Source: Pseudarthrobacter sp. MM222 (GTDB lineage Bacteria > Actinomycetota > Actinomycetes > Actinomycetales > Micrococcaceae). Taken from it: a stretch of DNA of 64,000 nucleotides. Positions within the stretch are counted from its first letter, which is position 1. Every line of letters begins with the position of its first letter. Where the stretch lies: assembly GCF_947090775.1 (NCBI RefSeq), contig NZ_OX352321.1:3038001-3102000 (forward strand), read 5' to 3'. A program made the translations under genes and the position numbers. Below the pieces are notes generated by a model. That model worked only from the letters and a program-made list of their open reading frames with translations. It was not told where the DNA came from and ran no database searches. This document shows positions 17,167 through 23,134 of this stretch, piece after piece.

Positions 17167-18306
17167 TCAGAGCGCCTCGCGCTGCAGCGAACGTGCGGCG
17201 TCGATGGTGGCCTGCCCCAGGACCCGGCTGCCCTGGTAGAGAACCACCGTCTGTCCGGGGGCGACGCCACGCAGGGGTTCCACCAAGGTGACCACGAGGT
17301 TTCCGGGCCCGCCGGCACCGGGTGCGTCCGCGGGTTCCATCCGGGCGGTTGCGGGCACGGGGTCACCGTGCGCGCGGACCTGGGCATAGCAGTCGAATTC
17401 CTCGCCGGTGGCGACTTCTGCAATCGGCAACCCGGCCCAGGACACCTTGATGCCGCGGATTTCATCGATGGCAAGGAGGGCCTCAGGCCCGACCACAACC
17501 TTGTTTTCCTTCGGGCGGATCTCCAGGACAAACCGGGGCTTGCCGTCGGCGGCCGGGGTGCCCAGCTTCAGGCCGCGGCGCTGGCCAACGGTGAACGCGT
17601 TGGCCCCCGGGTGCTCGCCGACCTTCGCGCCGGATTCATCCACGATGTCACCGGTGGTCATGTCGATTTTCTCGGCCAGCCAGCCGGCGGTGTCGCCGTC
17701 GGGAATGAAGCAGATGTCGTGGCTGTCCGGCTTGTTGGCAACGGAGAGGCCTCGGCGCTCGGCTTCGGCGCGCACCTCCGCCTTGGACGGCGTCTCAGCC
17801 AGCGGGAACATGGAGTGTTTGAGCTGCTCGTGGGTCAGCACGCCGAGGACATAGCTCTGGTCCTTCGCCCAGTCGGCGGCCCGGTGCAGCTCGGGGTTGC
17901 CGTCCGCGTCGGTGATCACCTTGGCGTAGTGCCCGGTACAGACGGCATCAAACCCCAGCGCGATCGCCTTCTCGAGCAGCGCAGCGAACTTGATTCGTTC
18001 ATTGCAGCGCATGCAGGGGTTGGGCGTGCGTCCGGCGGCGTACTCGTCAATGAAGTCCTGGACCACGTCCTCCTTGAAGCGCTCGGAGAAGTCCCAGACG
18101 TAGTACGGGATGCCCAGCACGTCGCAGGCGCGCCAGGCGTCCCGGGAGTCCTCAATGGTGCAGCAGCCTCGGCTGCCGGTACGCAGGGTGCCCGGCATCC
18201 GTGACAGCGCCAGGTGGACACCGACGACGTCATGTCCGGCTTCGACGGCACGGGCGGCGGCGACGGCGGAGTCAACGCCGCCGCTCATTGCTGCAAGAAC
18301 TCGCAT
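17167..18306 (-). CDS. mnmA: tRNA-specific 2-thiouridylase MnmA
   Basis: MnmA adds sulfur to U34 of Lys, Glu and Gln tRNAs, using sulfur relayed from a cysteine desulfurase. The 379-residue product starts [17 protein letters not shown], the PP-loop ATP motif. It contains the catalytic cysteine region NPCMRCNE (near residue 98) and the GHYAK block. The second cysteine lies in [11 protein letters not shown] (near residue 195). In mycobacteria mnmA lies beside iscS; here a FAD oxidoreductase gene is inserted between them on the other strand. Identification is secure. Confidence 0.96.
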
Positions 18307-18432: not shown

Positions 18433-18481
18433 TTGACGGGTGCGCCCCCCGCTTCTAAAGTCAGGATTATCAGTTTTAGAA
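18433..18481 (+). promoter_or_regulatory. Promoter and 29-bp palindromic operator of the FAD oxidoreductase
   Basis: A -35 box TTGACG (18433-18438) and a -10 box TAAAGT (18456-18461) are spaced by 17 nt. A 29-bp inverted repeat (18453-18481; left arm TTCTAAAG, 13-nt centre, right arm TTTTAGAA) covers the -10 box and the expected start of transcription. This is a repressor-like arrangement. The same element with the same offsets lies before the DoxX-like gene at 22682-22710. Confidence 0.72.
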
Positions 18482-18506
18482 TGCCATCGGCGGGGGTCGA
18501 GCGGAA

Positions 18507-19751
18507 ATGGCTGTTGAGGACATCGTGATCGTCGGCGGCGGGCTGGCCGGTGCCACAGCCGCCAGGACCCTGCGGACGGAAGGCTTCAGTGGACCGGTAG
18601 TGCTGCTGGCCGGCGAGCGGCATTACCCCTACCTACGTCCGCCGCTGTCCAAGGAGTATCTGTTGGGCAAGGCCGGGGATGACGCGCTGCCCGTGGTGCC
18701 GGAGGGCTGGTACGACGAAAACGCCGTCGAGCTGCGGTTGGGAGTCCCGGCGACGCAACTGGATCCCTCCGCGCGGACAGTGGGCCTGGCTGACGGCAGC
18801 CGGCTGGAATATGCCTCGCTGTTGCTCGCGACCGGAGCGCGGCCCCGGAGCATTCCGCTGCCGGGCAACGACTTGGACGGCGTGAGCTCCTTCCGGACCG
18901 TGGAGGACAGCCGCCGGCTGCGGGCCCGTTTCGCCGAGGGCGGGCGGAACATTGTGATGATCGGCTCGGGTTGGATCGGAATGGAACTGGCCGCCGCCGC
19001 GAGCAGCTACGGAAATGCCGTCACCCTGCTGGGGTTGGAGGAGGTGCCGTTGGGGGTGGCGATCGGGCCGGAGCTGGGTTCCTTCTTCCGTACCCTGCAC
19101 GAAGCCAACGGTGTGCGGTTCCGGCTTCCGGCGTCGGCGGCCGAAATCCAGGGACGGTCGGGACGGGTGACCGGGGTGCTGACCGACGCCGGAGAGGTCC
19201 TTCCCGCGGATTTGGTGGTCGTGGCCGTGGGGGTGGTACCGGATGGCGCCTTGGCCGAAGCCGCCGGGATCGGAATGCGCAACGGGATCCTGACGGACGC
19301 CTCGCTGCGGACCTCGGCTCCCGGGATCTTCGCGGCCGGCGACGTCGCCAATGCCCTGCACCCGTTCACCGGGGAGCACCACCGCAGCGAGCACTGGTCC
19401 AATGCGCTGAACGGCGGCAAAGTGGCGGCCAAGGCGATGCTCGGCCAGGACGCCGCGCTGGACACCATCCCGTATTTCTATACCGACCAGTTCGACGTCA
19501 GCATGGAATACTCCGGATTCCCCAGCCTCGTCTCCGGGCCGCCCGTAATCCGAGGGTCCCTGGATGCCAAGGAATTCGTGGCGTTCTGGCAGCGCGATGG
19601 CCAGGTGGTGGCCGGGATGAGCGTCAACTGGCCACGGTCCGCAAAACCCCAGAAAGCGATCAAGGCGCTCATTGCAGCCAAGACTCCGGTGGCGCCTGAG
19701 GCCCTGGCCGATCCGGAGGTTCCACTGGATCAGCTTCTTCCGGCAGCCTGA
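18507..19751 (+). CDS. FAD/NAD(P)-dependent oxidoreductase of the ferredoxin/rubredoxin reductase type
   Basis: This 414-residue flavoprotein has an FAD-binding motif [11 protein letters not shown] at the start, an NAD(P)H-binding motif IGSGWIGME near residue 155, the second FAD motif FAAGDVAN near residue 275, and a Reductase_C-like end. It resembles reductases that pass electrons from NAD(P)H to ferredoxins or rubredoxins. No oxygenase or ferredoxin gene lies nearby, so its partner is unknown. A 29-bp operator overlaps its promoter. Its 3' end overlaps the convergent desulfurase gene by 22 nt. It separates mnmA from the desulfurase, which suggests a later insertion. Confidence 0.88.
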
Positions 19752-20971
19752 CGGGCTGTTTGGCGGGCGAGCGTTCCGGCGGTCTGGATGCTCGATTCGT
19801 GCCCGGCCATGCCGGCCTGGCGGGCGCGGGCGTAAGCACCCGGCAGGGCCGCCAGCAGCGCGTCGACATCCTCCGCGGTGGAGGAATGCCCCAGCGTGAA
19901 GCGCTGCGCCCCCCTGGCCGCGGCCTCGTCCAGGCCCATGGCCAGCAGCACGTGGGACGGGCGCGGGACACCTGCCGTGCACGCCGACCCGGTGGAGGAC
20001 TCGACGCCGGCGAGGTCCAGCAGGAACAACAGGGAGTCGCCCTCACAGCCGGGGAAGGTGAAGTGTGCGTTGCCCGGCAGCCGCCCCGCCCCGGGGGCTC
20101 CGCGCAGCACTGCCTCCGGCACCGCCGCCAGGACACCGTCGATCAGGCGGTCCCGGAGCGCCGCGATCCGGACGGCCTCCTCGGGGAGCTTCGCCGCGGC
20201 GGCCTCGGCAGCCGCAGCAAAGGCGGCAATCGAGGCGGTGTCGAGCGTCCCGGAGCGGACGTCGCGCTCCTGGCCTCCGCCGTGCTGGACCGGGGTCAGC
20301 TTCACCGCGCGGCCCAGGAGGAGCGCGCCGACGCCGACGGGCCCGCCGATCTTGTGCCCGGAGACGGACATGGCATCGAGGCCGGTGCCGCGGAAATCCA
20401 CAGGCACGGAGCCGAAGGCCTGGACGGCGTCGGAGTGCACGGGGACGCCGGCGGCGTGCGCCAGTTCAACGATCCTGGCTATGGGCTGGATGGTGCCGAC
20501 CTCGTTGTTGGCCCACATGACCGTGACAAGGGAGACCGATGCCGGATCGCGGGAGAGTTCGGCCTGCAGCACCGCAAGGTCCACGACGCCCTCGGCATCC
20601 ACCGGGAGCCAGCACACGTCCGCGCCCTCATGCCGTTCCAGCCATTCCACGGTGTCCAGCACCGCGTGGTGTTCGACGGCGGAGCACAGGACGCGCGTCC
20701 GGTCCGGATTCTCGGCGCGACGTGCCCAGTACAGGCCCTTGACCGCCAGGTTGTCGGACTCGGTCCCGCCGGAGGTGAAGATGATTTCGGAGGGATGGGC
20801 CCCGGCGGCCGAAGCCAGCACTTCCCGCGCGTCCTCGACAGCCCGGCGGGCCCGGCGGCCAGAGCCGTGCAGCGACGAGGGGTTGCCGGTGCGGGCCAAT
20901 TCGCGGGTCAGCGCTGCCAGCGCCTCCGGGGCGAGGGTGGTGGTGGCGGCATGGTCGAGATAAACAGGCAC
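19730..20971 (-). CDS. iscS: Cysteine desulfurase, IscS/NifS family
   Basis: This PLP enzyme takes sulfur from cysteine for tRNA thiolation or Fe-S clusters. The 413-residue product starts [18 protein letters not shown]. It has the PLP lysine in [10 protein letters not shown] (near residue 205) and the active-site cysteine in STGSACTAG (near residue 325). The GTG at 20971 gives the standard start; the frame is open upstream to 21136 but that part is not family-like. No iscU follows, so its main task may be sulfur supply to MnmA. The last codons overlap the opposite-strand FAD oxidoreductase. Confidence 0.92.
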
Positions 20972-21045
20972 AGCCCCAATTCTACCCGCGGCGGCTGCCG
21001 GCGAAGCAGCCTGGCAAGGCCCGCCGCTCGTGTACATTCGAGCGG

Positions 21046-21921
21046 GTGAAAGCGTCCCTCTACCTTGTCCTGGCCACCCTGTTCTGGTCCGGAAACTACG
21101 TGGTCGGCGAGGCCGCGGTCGCCTCCATGACGCCACTGGAGCTCACCTTCTGGCGCTGGGCCCTGGCGGCCATGCCGCTGCTGCTCCTGGCCCAGTTCGT
21201 CGAGAAGCCTGACTGGCGCGCGGTGCTGCGCCGCTGGCCGGCGCTCCTGGTCCTGAGCATGCTGGGGATGAGCGGCTACACGCTGCTGTTGTACGGGGCG
21301 CTCGGCTACACGTCCGCCATGAACGCCTCCCTCATCACGGCAGCGAACCCGGCGCTGATCGTGGTGATGGCGATTATCCTGCTCGGGGAGAAGACGACCC
21401 GACTGGGCTGGCTCGGTATTTGCCTCGGCCTCCTGGGCGTGCTCCTCGTGCTGACGCGGGGCGAGCTTCAGAGGCTCCTCAGCTTCACAATGAACACCGG
21501 CGAGCTCCTGATGATCGGCGCGATCATCGTCTGGGGCTTCTACACGATCATTGCCCGCCGGCTGAACTTGCCGGCCATCGCGGCTACCGCCGTCCAGGTG
21601 GTGATGGCAACCGTGAGCCTGGCACCGTTCGCCCTCGCCCTGAACGTGCAGTTTCCCGACACCCCGGCCGAGGGCTGGTCCCTTGCCTACATCGCGGTCT
21701 TCCCGTCCCTTGGCGCCTATCTGCTCTGGAACCTGGCGCTGAAGTCCACCCCGCCGGGCACTGCGGGAAACTACCTCAATCTCATGGTCGTCTTCACCGC
21801 CGTCATCACCGTCGCGCTGGGGACGCCGCTGACCCTGGTACAGGTCATAGGCGGCCTGATGGTGATCGCGGGCGTCCTGCTGACCGGGGTGAAGGGGCGG
21901 TCCAGGCTCAAGGCAGCCTGA
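21046..21921 (+). CDS. EamA-family (DMT) transporter
   Basis: This 291-residue integral membrane protein has about ten hydrophobic segments arranged as two repeated five-helix EamA units. The first repeat begins [19 protein letters not shown] and the second begins [19 protein letters not shown]. Members export amino acids or other metabolites, but the substrate cannot be predicted here. The GTG start at 21046 lies 74 nt from the divergent desulfurase start. The gene is convergent with the SufR-like regulator, ending 11 nt before that gene's stop. Confidence 0.88.
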
Positions 21922-21932
21922 ACCGGGCGCGC

Positions 21933-22631
21933 TCAGGCCGGCCGGATCCGGGCGCAGCATTGCCCGGGCCCTGCGGCTCCGCTGGCACGGAGGTCCTCGA
22001 TGGCCAGCGCCTCCACGCATTCCGGGGCAACGCCGCAAGCTGCGGCGGCTCCGCCCAGGAAGGCGCCGTTCATGGCGCACACCACGTCCGCATGGCCGGC
22101 CGCGATCCGGTGGAACGGGCAGTTCAGTAGCACCAACCCGCCCGCACCGTCGTCCTCGGGCCGATAGCCTTCCGCGGCCAGCAGCTCCGCAAAGGCCGCC
22201 GCATCCTTCCCGTCCGCGGCGGCCCGCCCGCGCGCATAAGCGGACCGGAGCAGCGCCTCGCGGGCAGGGACGCCAGCCGCCGTCGACTCCTCGATCGCGG
22301 CGACCAGCAGCTCGGCTGCCAGATCATAGTTCCGCTCAGGTACGGAGGCGGCTACCTCCTGGACTCCGGCCTTGTATAGCTTGGCGGGACGGCCGGAACC
22401 GGGGCCCTCCCGGCCCCCGAGCTTCCGGAACTCCACAGCAAGAAGCCCGTCGTGCACCATCCGGTCCAGATGAAAGGACGCGGTGCTCCGCGGCACGCCC
22501 AGGGCGCCGGCGGCGTCGTTCCGGCTTACCGGCTCCTCCGCTGACGCAACAAAAGCGAACAACTTCCGGCGGGTCTCGTCGCCGAGGGAGGCCACGGCGG
22601 CCATCCTGCGCCGCCAGGGAAGTGTGCTCAT
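21933..22631 (-). CDS. SufR-like winged-helix regulator (COG2345 type) with C-terminal cysteines
   Basis: The 232-residue product has an N-terminal ArsR/MarR-like winged helix (about residues 10-90, with VSRNDAAGALGVPRSTASFHL as recognition region). The C-terminal domain carries cysteines at 171, 185, 199, 205 and 225-226. The C-x13-C-x13-C spacing resembles the [4Fe-4S]-binding SufR family. I therefore infer a metal- or FeS-sensing repressor. The ATG at 22631 is preferred over the upstream start at 22655. It is divergent from the DoxX-like gene, and operators cover the shared promoter region, so autoregulation is likely. No suf genes lie in the window. Confidence 0.75.
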   Translation of the reverse strand: MSTLPWRRRMAAVASLGDETRRKLFAFVASAEEPVSRNDAAGALGVPRSTASFHLDRMVHDGLLAVEFRKLGGREGPGSGRPAKLYKAGVQEVAASVPERNYDLAAELLVAAIEESTAAGVPAREALLRSAYARGRAAADGKDAAAFAELLAAEGYRPEDDGAGGLVLLNCPFHRIAAGHADVVCAMNGAFLGGAAAACGVAPECVEALAIEDLRASGAAGPGQCCARIRPA

Positions 22632-22643
22632 GAGGCATTCTAA

Positions 22644-22672
22644 CTCTAAAAACAAGATCCATTGTTTAATAG
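22644..22672. promoter_or_regulatory. Degenerate second operator over the regulator's own promoter
   Basis: This 29-bp stretch matches about 17 positions of the intact operator at 22682-22710, including CTAAAA and CAAG in the left half. It covers the predicted -10 TATTAA (22671-22666, minus strand) of the regulator gene. Its -35 TTGATT (22693-22688) lies inside the intact operator. The match is moderate, so it may be a weak site. Confidence 0.4.
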
Positions 22673-22710
22673 CCCTAGCGGTTCTAAAATCAAGTTATTC
22701 ACTTTTAGAA
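22662..22710 (+). promoter_or_regulatory. Promoter and 29-bp palindromic operator of the DoxX-like gene
   Basis: A -35 box TTGTTT (22662-22667) and a -10 box TAAAAT (22685-22690) are spaced 17 nt. The inverted repeat at 22682-22710 has perfect 8-nt arms (TTCTAAAA, TTTTAGAA) around 13 nt and overlaps the -10 box. The offset between operator and -10 is the same as at 18453-18481, and 23 of 29 bases are identical. The Shine-Dalgarno AAGGAG begins at the operator's right edge. Confidence 0.75.
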
Positions 22711-22720
22711 GGAGCTTGAG

Positions 22721-23134
22721 ATGGAATCCTCCACAATCCGTTCCACCGCTACCCGTCCGTTGCTCGAGGGACCAGGTCGGCAGGCCTTTCTGCTGCTGAG
22801 GACGGTCTTCACCGTGGCGCCCATACTGTTCGGACTGGACAAATTCACCAATCTGATGGCTGACTGGACGATCTATCTGGCGCCCGTGGCCACGTCCGTG
22901 ATCCCGCTTCCGGCCCAGACCATCATGTACGCAGTCGGCGTCGTGGAAATCGTTGCCGGGCTCACGGTGGCGTTCCGGCCCCGCTTCGGATCGCTGCTGG
23001 TTGCCGTCTGGTTGTTCGGCATCATCATCAACCTGCTCGTGCTGGGCGCCTTCTTCGATGTGGCCCTTCGCGATTTCGGTTTGTTGGTCGGAGCGCTGGC
23101 GCTGAACCGGCTGTCACCGGGGAAGCTCCGGTAG
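22721..23134 (+). CDS. DoxX-like small integral membrane protein
   Basis: The 137-residue protein has four hydrophobic segments and the LFGLDKFTNLMADW region typical of DoxX-like membrane proteins. DoxX-family members have been linked to redox balance at the membrane in some bacteria, but this copy has no tested role. The start at 22721 has AAGGAG with good spacing. It is divergent from a SufR-like regulator and shares its operator type with the FAD oxidoreductase gene, so both may answer the same signal. A stem at about 23137-23175 follows the stop codon. Confidence 0.78.
   Translation: MESSTIRSTATRPLLEGPGRQAFLLLRTVFTVAPILFGLDKFTNLMADWTIYLAPVATSVIPLPAQTIMYAVGVVEIVAGLTVAFRPRFGSLLVAVWLFGIIINLLVLGAFFDVALRDFGLLVGALALNRLSPGKLR

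What the first reader, a model, noticed from the sequence alone, without database searches (positions are those of the whole stretch)
18433..22710. Two promoters 4.2 kb apart carry the same 29-bp inverted repeat at the same offset
The sites at 18453-18481 and 22682-22710 share 23 of 29 bases, with 8-nt arms and a 13-nt centre. In each, the -10 box starts three bases into the repeat and a -35 box lies 17 nt upstream. They lie before a FAD oxidoreductase gene and a DoxX-like membrane gene. In high-GC DNA such AT-rich, matching palindromes are unlikely by chance. They point to one repressor controlling both, probably the SufR-like regulator next to the second site.
Basis: partly seen in the sequence, partly recalled or inferred. 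Interest (0 to 1): 0.8.

Follow-up and report, generated by a model that had tools for sequence, protein, structure and literature searches.

The report
SufR-like repressor's conserved DoxX operator regulon
Two matching palindromes in front of a flavoprotein gene and a small membrane-protein gene are very probably landing sites for one neighbouring, unstudied regulator, and that regulator and its gene partners recur across actinobacteria, which points to a shared stress response that can now be tested.

Summary
The two 29-bp repeats are the only copies with up to two mismatches in the 4.29-Mb genome. In relatives the sites follow DoxX, the FAD ferredoxin reductase and the regulator, not the genes beside them. 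Sites and regulator co-occur: 66 of 67 site-bearing genomes carry the regulator, which 86 of 245 family genomes have. In some distant actinobacteria the regulator stands divergent to one row of DoxX, FolE and FAD, so the window's two promoters look like pieces of a split regulon that each kept an operator. The regulator is a SufR relative, not SufR: the genome has another SufR next to sufB. It nearly keeps the spacing of SufR's three essential cysteines (C-x13-C-x27..39-CC) and has an ArsR-type winged helix. Best reading: an autoregulated repressor that sits on the promoters and lets go when its cysteine-bound cofactor, probably an Fe-S cluster, is lost or oxidised. Binding, repression and signal are inferred. 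Nine paper searches found no account of this regulon.

The parts
18453..18481 (+). Operator over the FAD-reductase promoter: TTCTAAAG-N13-TTTTAGAA
   Evidence: a site with at most 3 mismatches upstream of FAD in 28 of 28 Arthrobacter-type loci that have the gene
18433..18438 (+). -35-like TTGACG, 17 nt before the -10
   Evidence: at spacer 17 with 5 of 6 matches in 10 of 10 distinct FAD sites
18456..18461 (+). -10-like TAAAGT inside the left arm
18507..19751 (+). FAD/NAD(P)H ferredoxin-reductase-type enzyme (Pyr_redox_2 + Reductase_C)
   Evidence: Pfam; nearest solved chain 3lxd, then rubredoxin, putidaredoxin and ferredoxin reductases
22682..22710 (+). Operator O1 over the DoxX promoter: TTCTAAAA-N13-TTTTAGAA
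   Evidence: conserved in relatives
22644..22672 (+). Second, degenerate operator O2 (CTCTAAAA-N13-TTTAATAG), 38 bp before O1; covers the DoxX -35 and the presumed -10 of the regulator gene
   Evidence: Matrix scan; a second site (at most 3 mismatches) 38 or 39 bp from O1 in 24 locus entries, about 19 distinct places; an O2-like element in distant families by eye
22662..22667 (+). Weak -35-like TTGTTT for DoxX, inside O2
   Evidence: TTGACT/TTGACA at nearly the same place in many relatives
22685..22690 (+). -10-like TAAAAT for DoxX, inside O1
21933..22631 (-). SufR-like regulator: ArsR-type winged helix (HTH_20) plus C-terminal C-x13-C-x39-CC
   Evidence: an upstream TTG start at 22655 cannot be excluded
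22721..23134 (+). DoxX-like membrane protein, 137 aa
   Evidence: PF07681 below its cut-off (E 0.0034, 18.4 bits against 23.6); matched at E up to 1 by 14 of 17 aligned members, this one included

Best explanation
The gene at 21933-22631 encodes an autoregulated repressor, a relative of SufR. It binds TTCTAAAR-N13/14-YTTTAGAA palindromes that lie over the -10 region of its targets. O1 (22682-22710) shuts the DoxX promoter, the 18453-18481 site shuts the FAD-reductase promoter 4.2 kb away, and the weaker O2 (22644-22672) covers the DoxX -35 and probably the regulator's own promoter. The arms lie 21 bp apart, about two helical turns, so a dimer (or two) could bind one face and exclude RNA polymerase. 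The C-terminal cysteines, spaced much like SufR's, probably hold an Fe-S cluster; loss or oxidation of it releases the DNA and switches on DoxX, the flavoprotein and the regulator together, as a redox or Fe-S-damage response. The ancestral layout was probably regulator <> DoxX, FolE, FAD in a row; in this lineage the row was split and the DoxX and FAD pieces kept an operator. Shown here: conservation, specificity and co-occurrence of sites and regulator, domain make-up and cysteine pattern. Inferred: direct binding, repression, Fe-S sensing, the ancestral order, the stress.
For: Genome-wide rarity. Co-occurrence 66 of 67, Fisher p 1.9e-40, not corrected for kinship. 84 of 88 regulator-upstream regions with a site against 0.55 of 88 for shuffled and 1 of 88 for the reversed pattern. 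Target specificity; the 5 of 33 loci without FAD beside mnmA also have no site there. Sites kept where DoxX lies away from the regulator (L065-L070, L072) or FAD does (L027-L032, L034). 78 of 80 named loci hold DoxX, FolE or FAD within the fetched flanks of the regulator; all three lie in one row in L186, L198, L266, L267, L269 and L272. The arm change TTCTAAAR to TTCTATMR goes with S/T/N (39 of 39 loci) to Q/K/R (15 of 16) in the recognition helix. Cysteine spacing parallels C203/C216/C244 of Rv1460, needed for its function, and Synechocystis SufR also has two sites between divergent genes (PMC6034842, passages).
Against: No binding or expression data. Kinship inflates the counts. The reversed control pattern with up to one mismatch occurs in 21 of 245 genomes against 67 for the real one, so single hits can be chance. 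4 of 88 regulator-upstream regions lack a site with at most 3 mismatches within 300 bp (one of them, L023, has a perfect site a little further off). 20 of 86 regulator genomes have no site at 1 mismatch or less (18 of these have a relaxed or N14 site, 2 none). G110 has the site without the regulator and was not examined. 24 of 79 classed named loci, most of them Microbacteriaceae or loci without DoxX, show neither arm type at 2 mismatches or less. 6 of 29 phylum-level regulator loci show none of the three partners within 1.5 kb, and some FolE matches counted there are only 37-42% identical. SufR's known DNA motif and its CxxxC are absent, so the Fe-S reading is by analogy. The DoxX -35 in the window is weak. 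The helix correlation is confounded: 15 of the 16 variant loci are Streptomyces.
Confidence: 0.72

Rival explanations
1. The same regulator binds the sites, but senses through thiol oxidation, electrophiles or a metal such as zinc rather than an Fe-S cluster.
For: The N-terminal part is ArsR-type, a fold shared by metal and thiol sensors; the invariant CC pair could form disulfides; the CxxxC of SufR is missing; DoxX-like proteins are described as up-regulated under oxidative stress (PMC12161575, one passage).
Against: Cysteine spacing and the flanking CP...C block parallel SufR; profile match to the genome's SufR over 189 columns including that block. PMC11614215 (passages) reports no DoxX-family up-regulation in a thiol stress of Mycobacterium.
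Confidence: 0.3
2. Another regulator, for example the canonical SufR beside sufB, binds these sites.
For: The genome has a second SufR-type protein directly upstream of sufB.
Against: The sites track the local regulator in 66 of 67 genomes; no other copy with up to 2 mismatches exists in the genome, so none at suf; a [CG]AAC-N6-GTT[GC] pattern, widened from the S. avermitilis motif reported in PMC11995493, is absent from both promoters, though it was also not found upstream of the genome's own sufR.
Confidence: 0.05
3. The repeats are promoter elements of a special sigma factor, not operators.
For: They overlap -10 and often have a fixed -35 distance.
Against: The right arm lies downstream of the -10; O2 sits over the -35; the spacer varies 13/14; they co-occur with one HTH gene.
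Confidence: 0.03
4. Chance or a repeat spread by duplication.
For: Only two good copies in the genome; a reversed control pattern turns up in 21 of 245 family genomes.
Against: Expected 0.02 per window; conserved upstream of the same genes while neighbours lack it; centres differ freely.
Confidence: 0.01

Closest known systems
SufR (Rv1460 of M. tuberculosis, S. avermitilis, C. glutamicum and cyanobacterial SufR)
   Same: ArsR-type winged helix plus C-terminal cysteine block; C-x12-C-x27-C against C-x13-C-x27..39-CC; divergent gene with two operators as reported for Synechocystis (PMC6034842, passages)
   Different: Sites at DoxX, FAD reductase and FolE rather than suf; operator TTCTAAAA-N13/14-TTTTAGAA rather than CAAC-N6-GTTG (PMC11995493, passages); no CxxxC; a separate SufR sits at sufB in the same genome
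ArsR/SmtB metalloregulators (CadC, CzrA, ArsR)
   Different: Extra C-terminal half with four invariant cysteines; score below the NCBIfam HTH_metalloreg cut-off (25.1 against 55 bits)
MhqR/YodB quinone sensors of Firmicutes that control DoxX-like genes (recalled; papers seen only in the listing)
   Same: One-component repressor of a DoxX-like gene in a redox or electrophile response
   Different: MarR/DUF24 folds, no C-terminal cysteine block, other operators (recalled)

Membership tests
SufR | ArsR-type winged-helix N-terminal half | tested here: met
   HTH_20; fold match to ArsR proteins
SufR | Three cysteines equivalent to C203/C216/C244 of Rv1460 (C-x12-C-x27-C) | tested here: met
   C-x13-C-x27..39-CC in 30 of 30 aligned members; first spacing one residue longer, second variable
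SufR | Fourth ligand in CxxxC as listed for C. glutamicum (171, 175, 188, 216) | tested here: not met
   The genome's SufR at L234 has CxxxC; the window regulator does not, but has an extra C in CC
SufR | Match to TIGR02702 SufR_cyano above cut-off | tested here: not met
   No match listed for the window regulator; the suf-linked SufR is also below the cut-off (76.5 against 178.8 bits), so this model says little in this genus
SufR | Linked to and controlling suf genes | tested here: not met
   No suf gene recognised among its neighbours; no operator copy elsewhere in the genome; another SufR lies at sufB. A NifS-like cysteine desulfurase lies nearby
SufR | Operator CAAC-N6-GTTG (S. avermitilis) | tested here: not met
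   Absent from both promoters; operator is TTCTAAAA-N13-TTTTAGAA
SufR | Binds an Fe-S cluster that governs DNA binding | not testable with these tools
   Needs purified protein
DoxX | PF07681 above gathering score | tested here: not met
   18.4 bits against 23.6; 14 of 17 aligned members match at E up to 1; called DoxX-like only
Ferredoxin reductase (BphA4/putidaredoxin-reductase type) | Pyr_redox_2 plus Reductase_C | tested here: met
   below the cut-off of each of the 25 NCBIfam models shown (of 55 matched), so substrate and partner are open

The most novel reading that the evidence does not exclude
A widespread but undescribed actinobacterial response: a second, SufR-derived Fe-S repressor that has left the suf operon and commands a DoxX, FolE and ferredoxin-reductase module, so that cluster damage raises a membrane redox protein, an NAD(P)H flavoprotein and pterin or folate synthesis together.
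Probability: 0.5. Interest if true: 0.68.

Novelty: new member of a known kind. Interest (0 to 1): 0.55.

Why it matters
It turns a hypothetical ArsR-family gene and two genes of unknown role into a defined regulon with named operators and a predicted sensing chemistry, seen from Arthrobacter to Streptomyces and in some distant actinobacterial families. To my knowledge DoxX-like proteins have no settled function; co-regulation with GTP cyclohydrolase I and a ferredoxin reductase in other genera gives a direct handle. It also suggests that the SufR family split into a suf branch and a second branch with other targets and another operator.

Tried and rejected
Further regulon members in the window's genome: three 3-mismatch hits (L003-L005), fewer than the reversed control, taken as chance. 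GTP cyclohydrolase I in the own genome: one copy at C1:162320, with no operator copy of up to 3 mismatches near it. Canonical SufR as the binder: rejected as above. A SufR-type site upstream of the genome's own sufR: none found with the pattern used, so that pattern is a weak test. Fold of the C-terminal half: the rows of the PDB search and second look cover residues 3-100 mainly; no statement about a new fold. Partner genes beyond DoxX/FolE/FAD: nine neighbours from five distant loci were scanned; COX1, DUF2231, transaldolase, phosphofructokinase and a transposase each came up once, cell-wall-binding repeats twice, two had no match. Literature: nine searches listed no paper on this regulator or its operator; subscription papers are largely not held. 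PMC8371249 and PMC7480368 are not held.

Rows left out: one search counts a regulator only at E below 1e-30 (86 of the 110 genomes with a match at E up to 1e-3). One search uses tblastn E up to 1e-20 and collapses identical regions to 88. One search uses 33 of the 80 named loci (L154-L185 and L194); L206 was left out because its genes appear in pieces. One search classed 79 of the 80; 24 stayed without a type. In one search one DoxX of 27 (L166) lacked a site because its match begins at residue 40 and the start was set past the site; one search shows a perfect site there. The list is capped (120 of 6,298 shown, 7,997 candidates scored). One search kept the best 80 of 575 loci. My notebook gives O2 as 22645-22673 and a spacing of 37-39; the right values are 22644-22672 and 38 or 39. 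The 'handles with reversed control' counts (21 and 9) were read by eye.
Full report
Observation. The repeats are real, at the stated places, with 23 of 29 bases shared. The arms fit TTCTAAAR-N13-YTTTAGAA. With up to three mismatches the window has two hits against 0.02 expected from shuffles. In the whole 4,287,032-bp genome no other copy has two mismatches or fewer; three with three mismatches are fewer than the 15 of the reversed-pattern control. The left site's arms pair at 7 of 8 positions. Both sites carry a -10-like hexamer three bases in and a -35-like hexamer 17 nt upstream, though the DoxX one (TTGTTT) matches the consensus at only 3 of 6.

A third site. A weight matrix built from 57 distinct sites of relatives (own genome left out) ranks the two known sites first and second, and then CTCTAAAAACAAGATCCATTGTTTAATAG at 22644-22672 with 14.2 bits, while the best stretch that is no site scores -5.2. 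It starts 38 bp before O1, between the regulator and DoxX. A second site with at most three mismatches 38 or 39 bp from the first is seen in 24 locus entries, about 19 distinct places. In Microbacteriaceae and Streptomyces a similar element around the -35 can be seen by eye. In the window it covers the DoxX -35 and the likely -10 of the regulator gene, as expected for autoregulation.

Who owns the sites. In a sample of 245 family genomes, 67 hold a site with at most one mismatch and 86 hold a regulator match below E 1e-30; 66 hold both, one only the site (G110, not examined), 20 only the regulator. Fisher p is 1.9e-40, uncorrected for kinship. The reversed control pattern occurs in 21 of the 245 genomes, and 9 of those 21 have the regulator (read), so chance hits exist but do not track it. 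Of the 20, 18 have a site with two or three mismatches or a 14-nt spacer, two (G075, G112) none. Of 88 distinct regulator-upstream regions, 84 have a site with at most three mismatches; the reversed pattern gives 1, and twenty shuffled palindromes a mean of 0.55. Of the four without, L023 has a perfect site just beyond the 300 bp searched, and L037 has lost DoxX but keeps the FAD site (same genome, L079).

Which genes. In 33 of the 80 named loci, chosen as Arthrobacter-type, sites with at most three mismatches lie within 250 bp upstream of DoxX in 26 of 27, FAD in 28 of 28 and the regulator in 31 of 33 (often the shared DoxX/regulator stretch); CysD 0 of 33, EamA 0 of 11, DnaJ 0 of 30. mnmA has one in 28 of 33 because it is divergent to FAD; the five without are the five loci with no FAD gene there. 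Where DoxX is missing beside the regulator, O1 is missing too and the FAD site stays (L161, L175, L178, L184, L185). In other genera DoxX lies elsewhere in the genome with its own palindrome (L065-L070, L072), or the FAD site lies far from the regulator (L027-L032, L034). In two genera of the sample (g24, g28) the site precedes a GTP cyclohydrolase I gene followed by FAD, as in several named Arthrobacter-labelled loci. The -35 with at least five of six matches at spacer 17 is found in 10 of 10 distinct FAD and 9 of 9 FolE sites; for DoxX 21 of 48 at spacer 17 or 18; shuffled upstream sequence 4.3%.

Depth. 78 of the 80 named loci show DoxX, FolE or FAD within the fetched flanks of the regulator, among them Streptomyces, Rhodococcus, Amycolatopsis, Nonomuraea, Geodermatophilus and Microbacteriaceae; these 80 were the best of 575. 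In a phylum sample 42 of 346 genomes have the regulator at E up to 1e-30; 23 of 29 loci read show at least one of the three partners within 1.5 kb, some FolE matches being only 37-42% identical. All three partners lie in one row on one side of the regulator in 4 of 8 such places read further (L266, L267, L269, L272) and in the named loci L186 and L198. I infer an ancestral regulator <> DoxX, FolE, FAD row, split in the window's lineage. This would explain why two promoters 4.2 kb apart carry one operator.

Coupled change. In the 15 Streptomyces loci and one Nonomuraea the arms fit TTCTATMR better, and the residue after R in the recognition helix is Q (13), K, R or N; in 39 loci with TTCTAAAR it is S, T or N in all; 24 of the 79 classed loci show neither arm type at two mismatches or less. 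This fits direct contact, but is confounded by descent.

The regulator. HTH_20 in front, model pLDDT 89.5, residues 3-100 like ArsR proteins. The other half carries C-x13-C-x27..39-CC in 30 of 30 aligned members. Profile comparison with the genome's own SufR, which lies directly upstream of sufB (sufB named by me from its sequence), aligns 189 columns with probability 95.5%. Rv1460 needs C203, C216 and C244, that is C-x12-C-x27-C, and Synechocystis SufR has a strong site for suf and a weak one for itself (PMC6034842, passages). C. glutamicum SufR is listed with a fourth ligand in CxxxC and S. avermitilis SufR with the motif CAAC-N6-GTTG (PMC11995493, passages); both are lacking here. So it looks like SufR in layout and cysteine pattern but is not SufR.

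Mechanism and signal. Sites over the -10 and start region speak for repression. Fe-S loss as the inducer is by analogy; thiol or metal sensing is the main rival. What DoxX, a ferredoxin-reductase-type flavoprotein and FolE do together is not known; a redox or Fe-S-damage response is my inference. Of 6,298 homologues found, the 120 listed carry, where named, only helix-turn-helix, ArsR-family or plain transcriptional regulator names, and nine paper searches listed no account of this regulon.

Noticed in passing
window 17167-18306 (-) and 18453-18481: mnmA is divergent to the FAD gene, so the operator might also touch its promoter, but where FAD is absent mnmA has no site.
   Followed up: yes
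   Followed up: partly
L065-L070: DoxX genes far from the regulator carry longer palindromes, for example TTCTAAAAACATAA...TTATGTTTTTAGAT.
   Followed up: no
L062, L063, L087, L092, L093, L096, L099, L101, L104, L106, L136, L213, L218, L228: Operators with a 14-nt instead of 13-nt centre and arms that fit the pattern fully.
   Followed up: partly
L272: Cytochrome oxidase subunit I gene next to FolE, FAD, DoxX and the regulator, a possible respiratory link.
   Followed up: no
L270: DUF2231 membrane protein gene follows DoxX and FolE beside the regulator.
   Followed up: no
L206 (Arthrobacter sp. Hiyo4): Regulator, CysD, FAD and mnmA each appear in several pieces, perhaps sequencing errors; left as found.
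   Followed up: no
G110: The only one of 67 site-bearing genomes without the regulator; its site position was not listed, and the reversed control also hits there.
   Followed up: no
L234:4275-5120: Canonical SufR-type gene directly upstream of sufB in the window's genome.
   Followed up: yes
L105: Two weak sites 93 bp apart instead of 38-39 between DoxX and the regulator.
   Followed up: no
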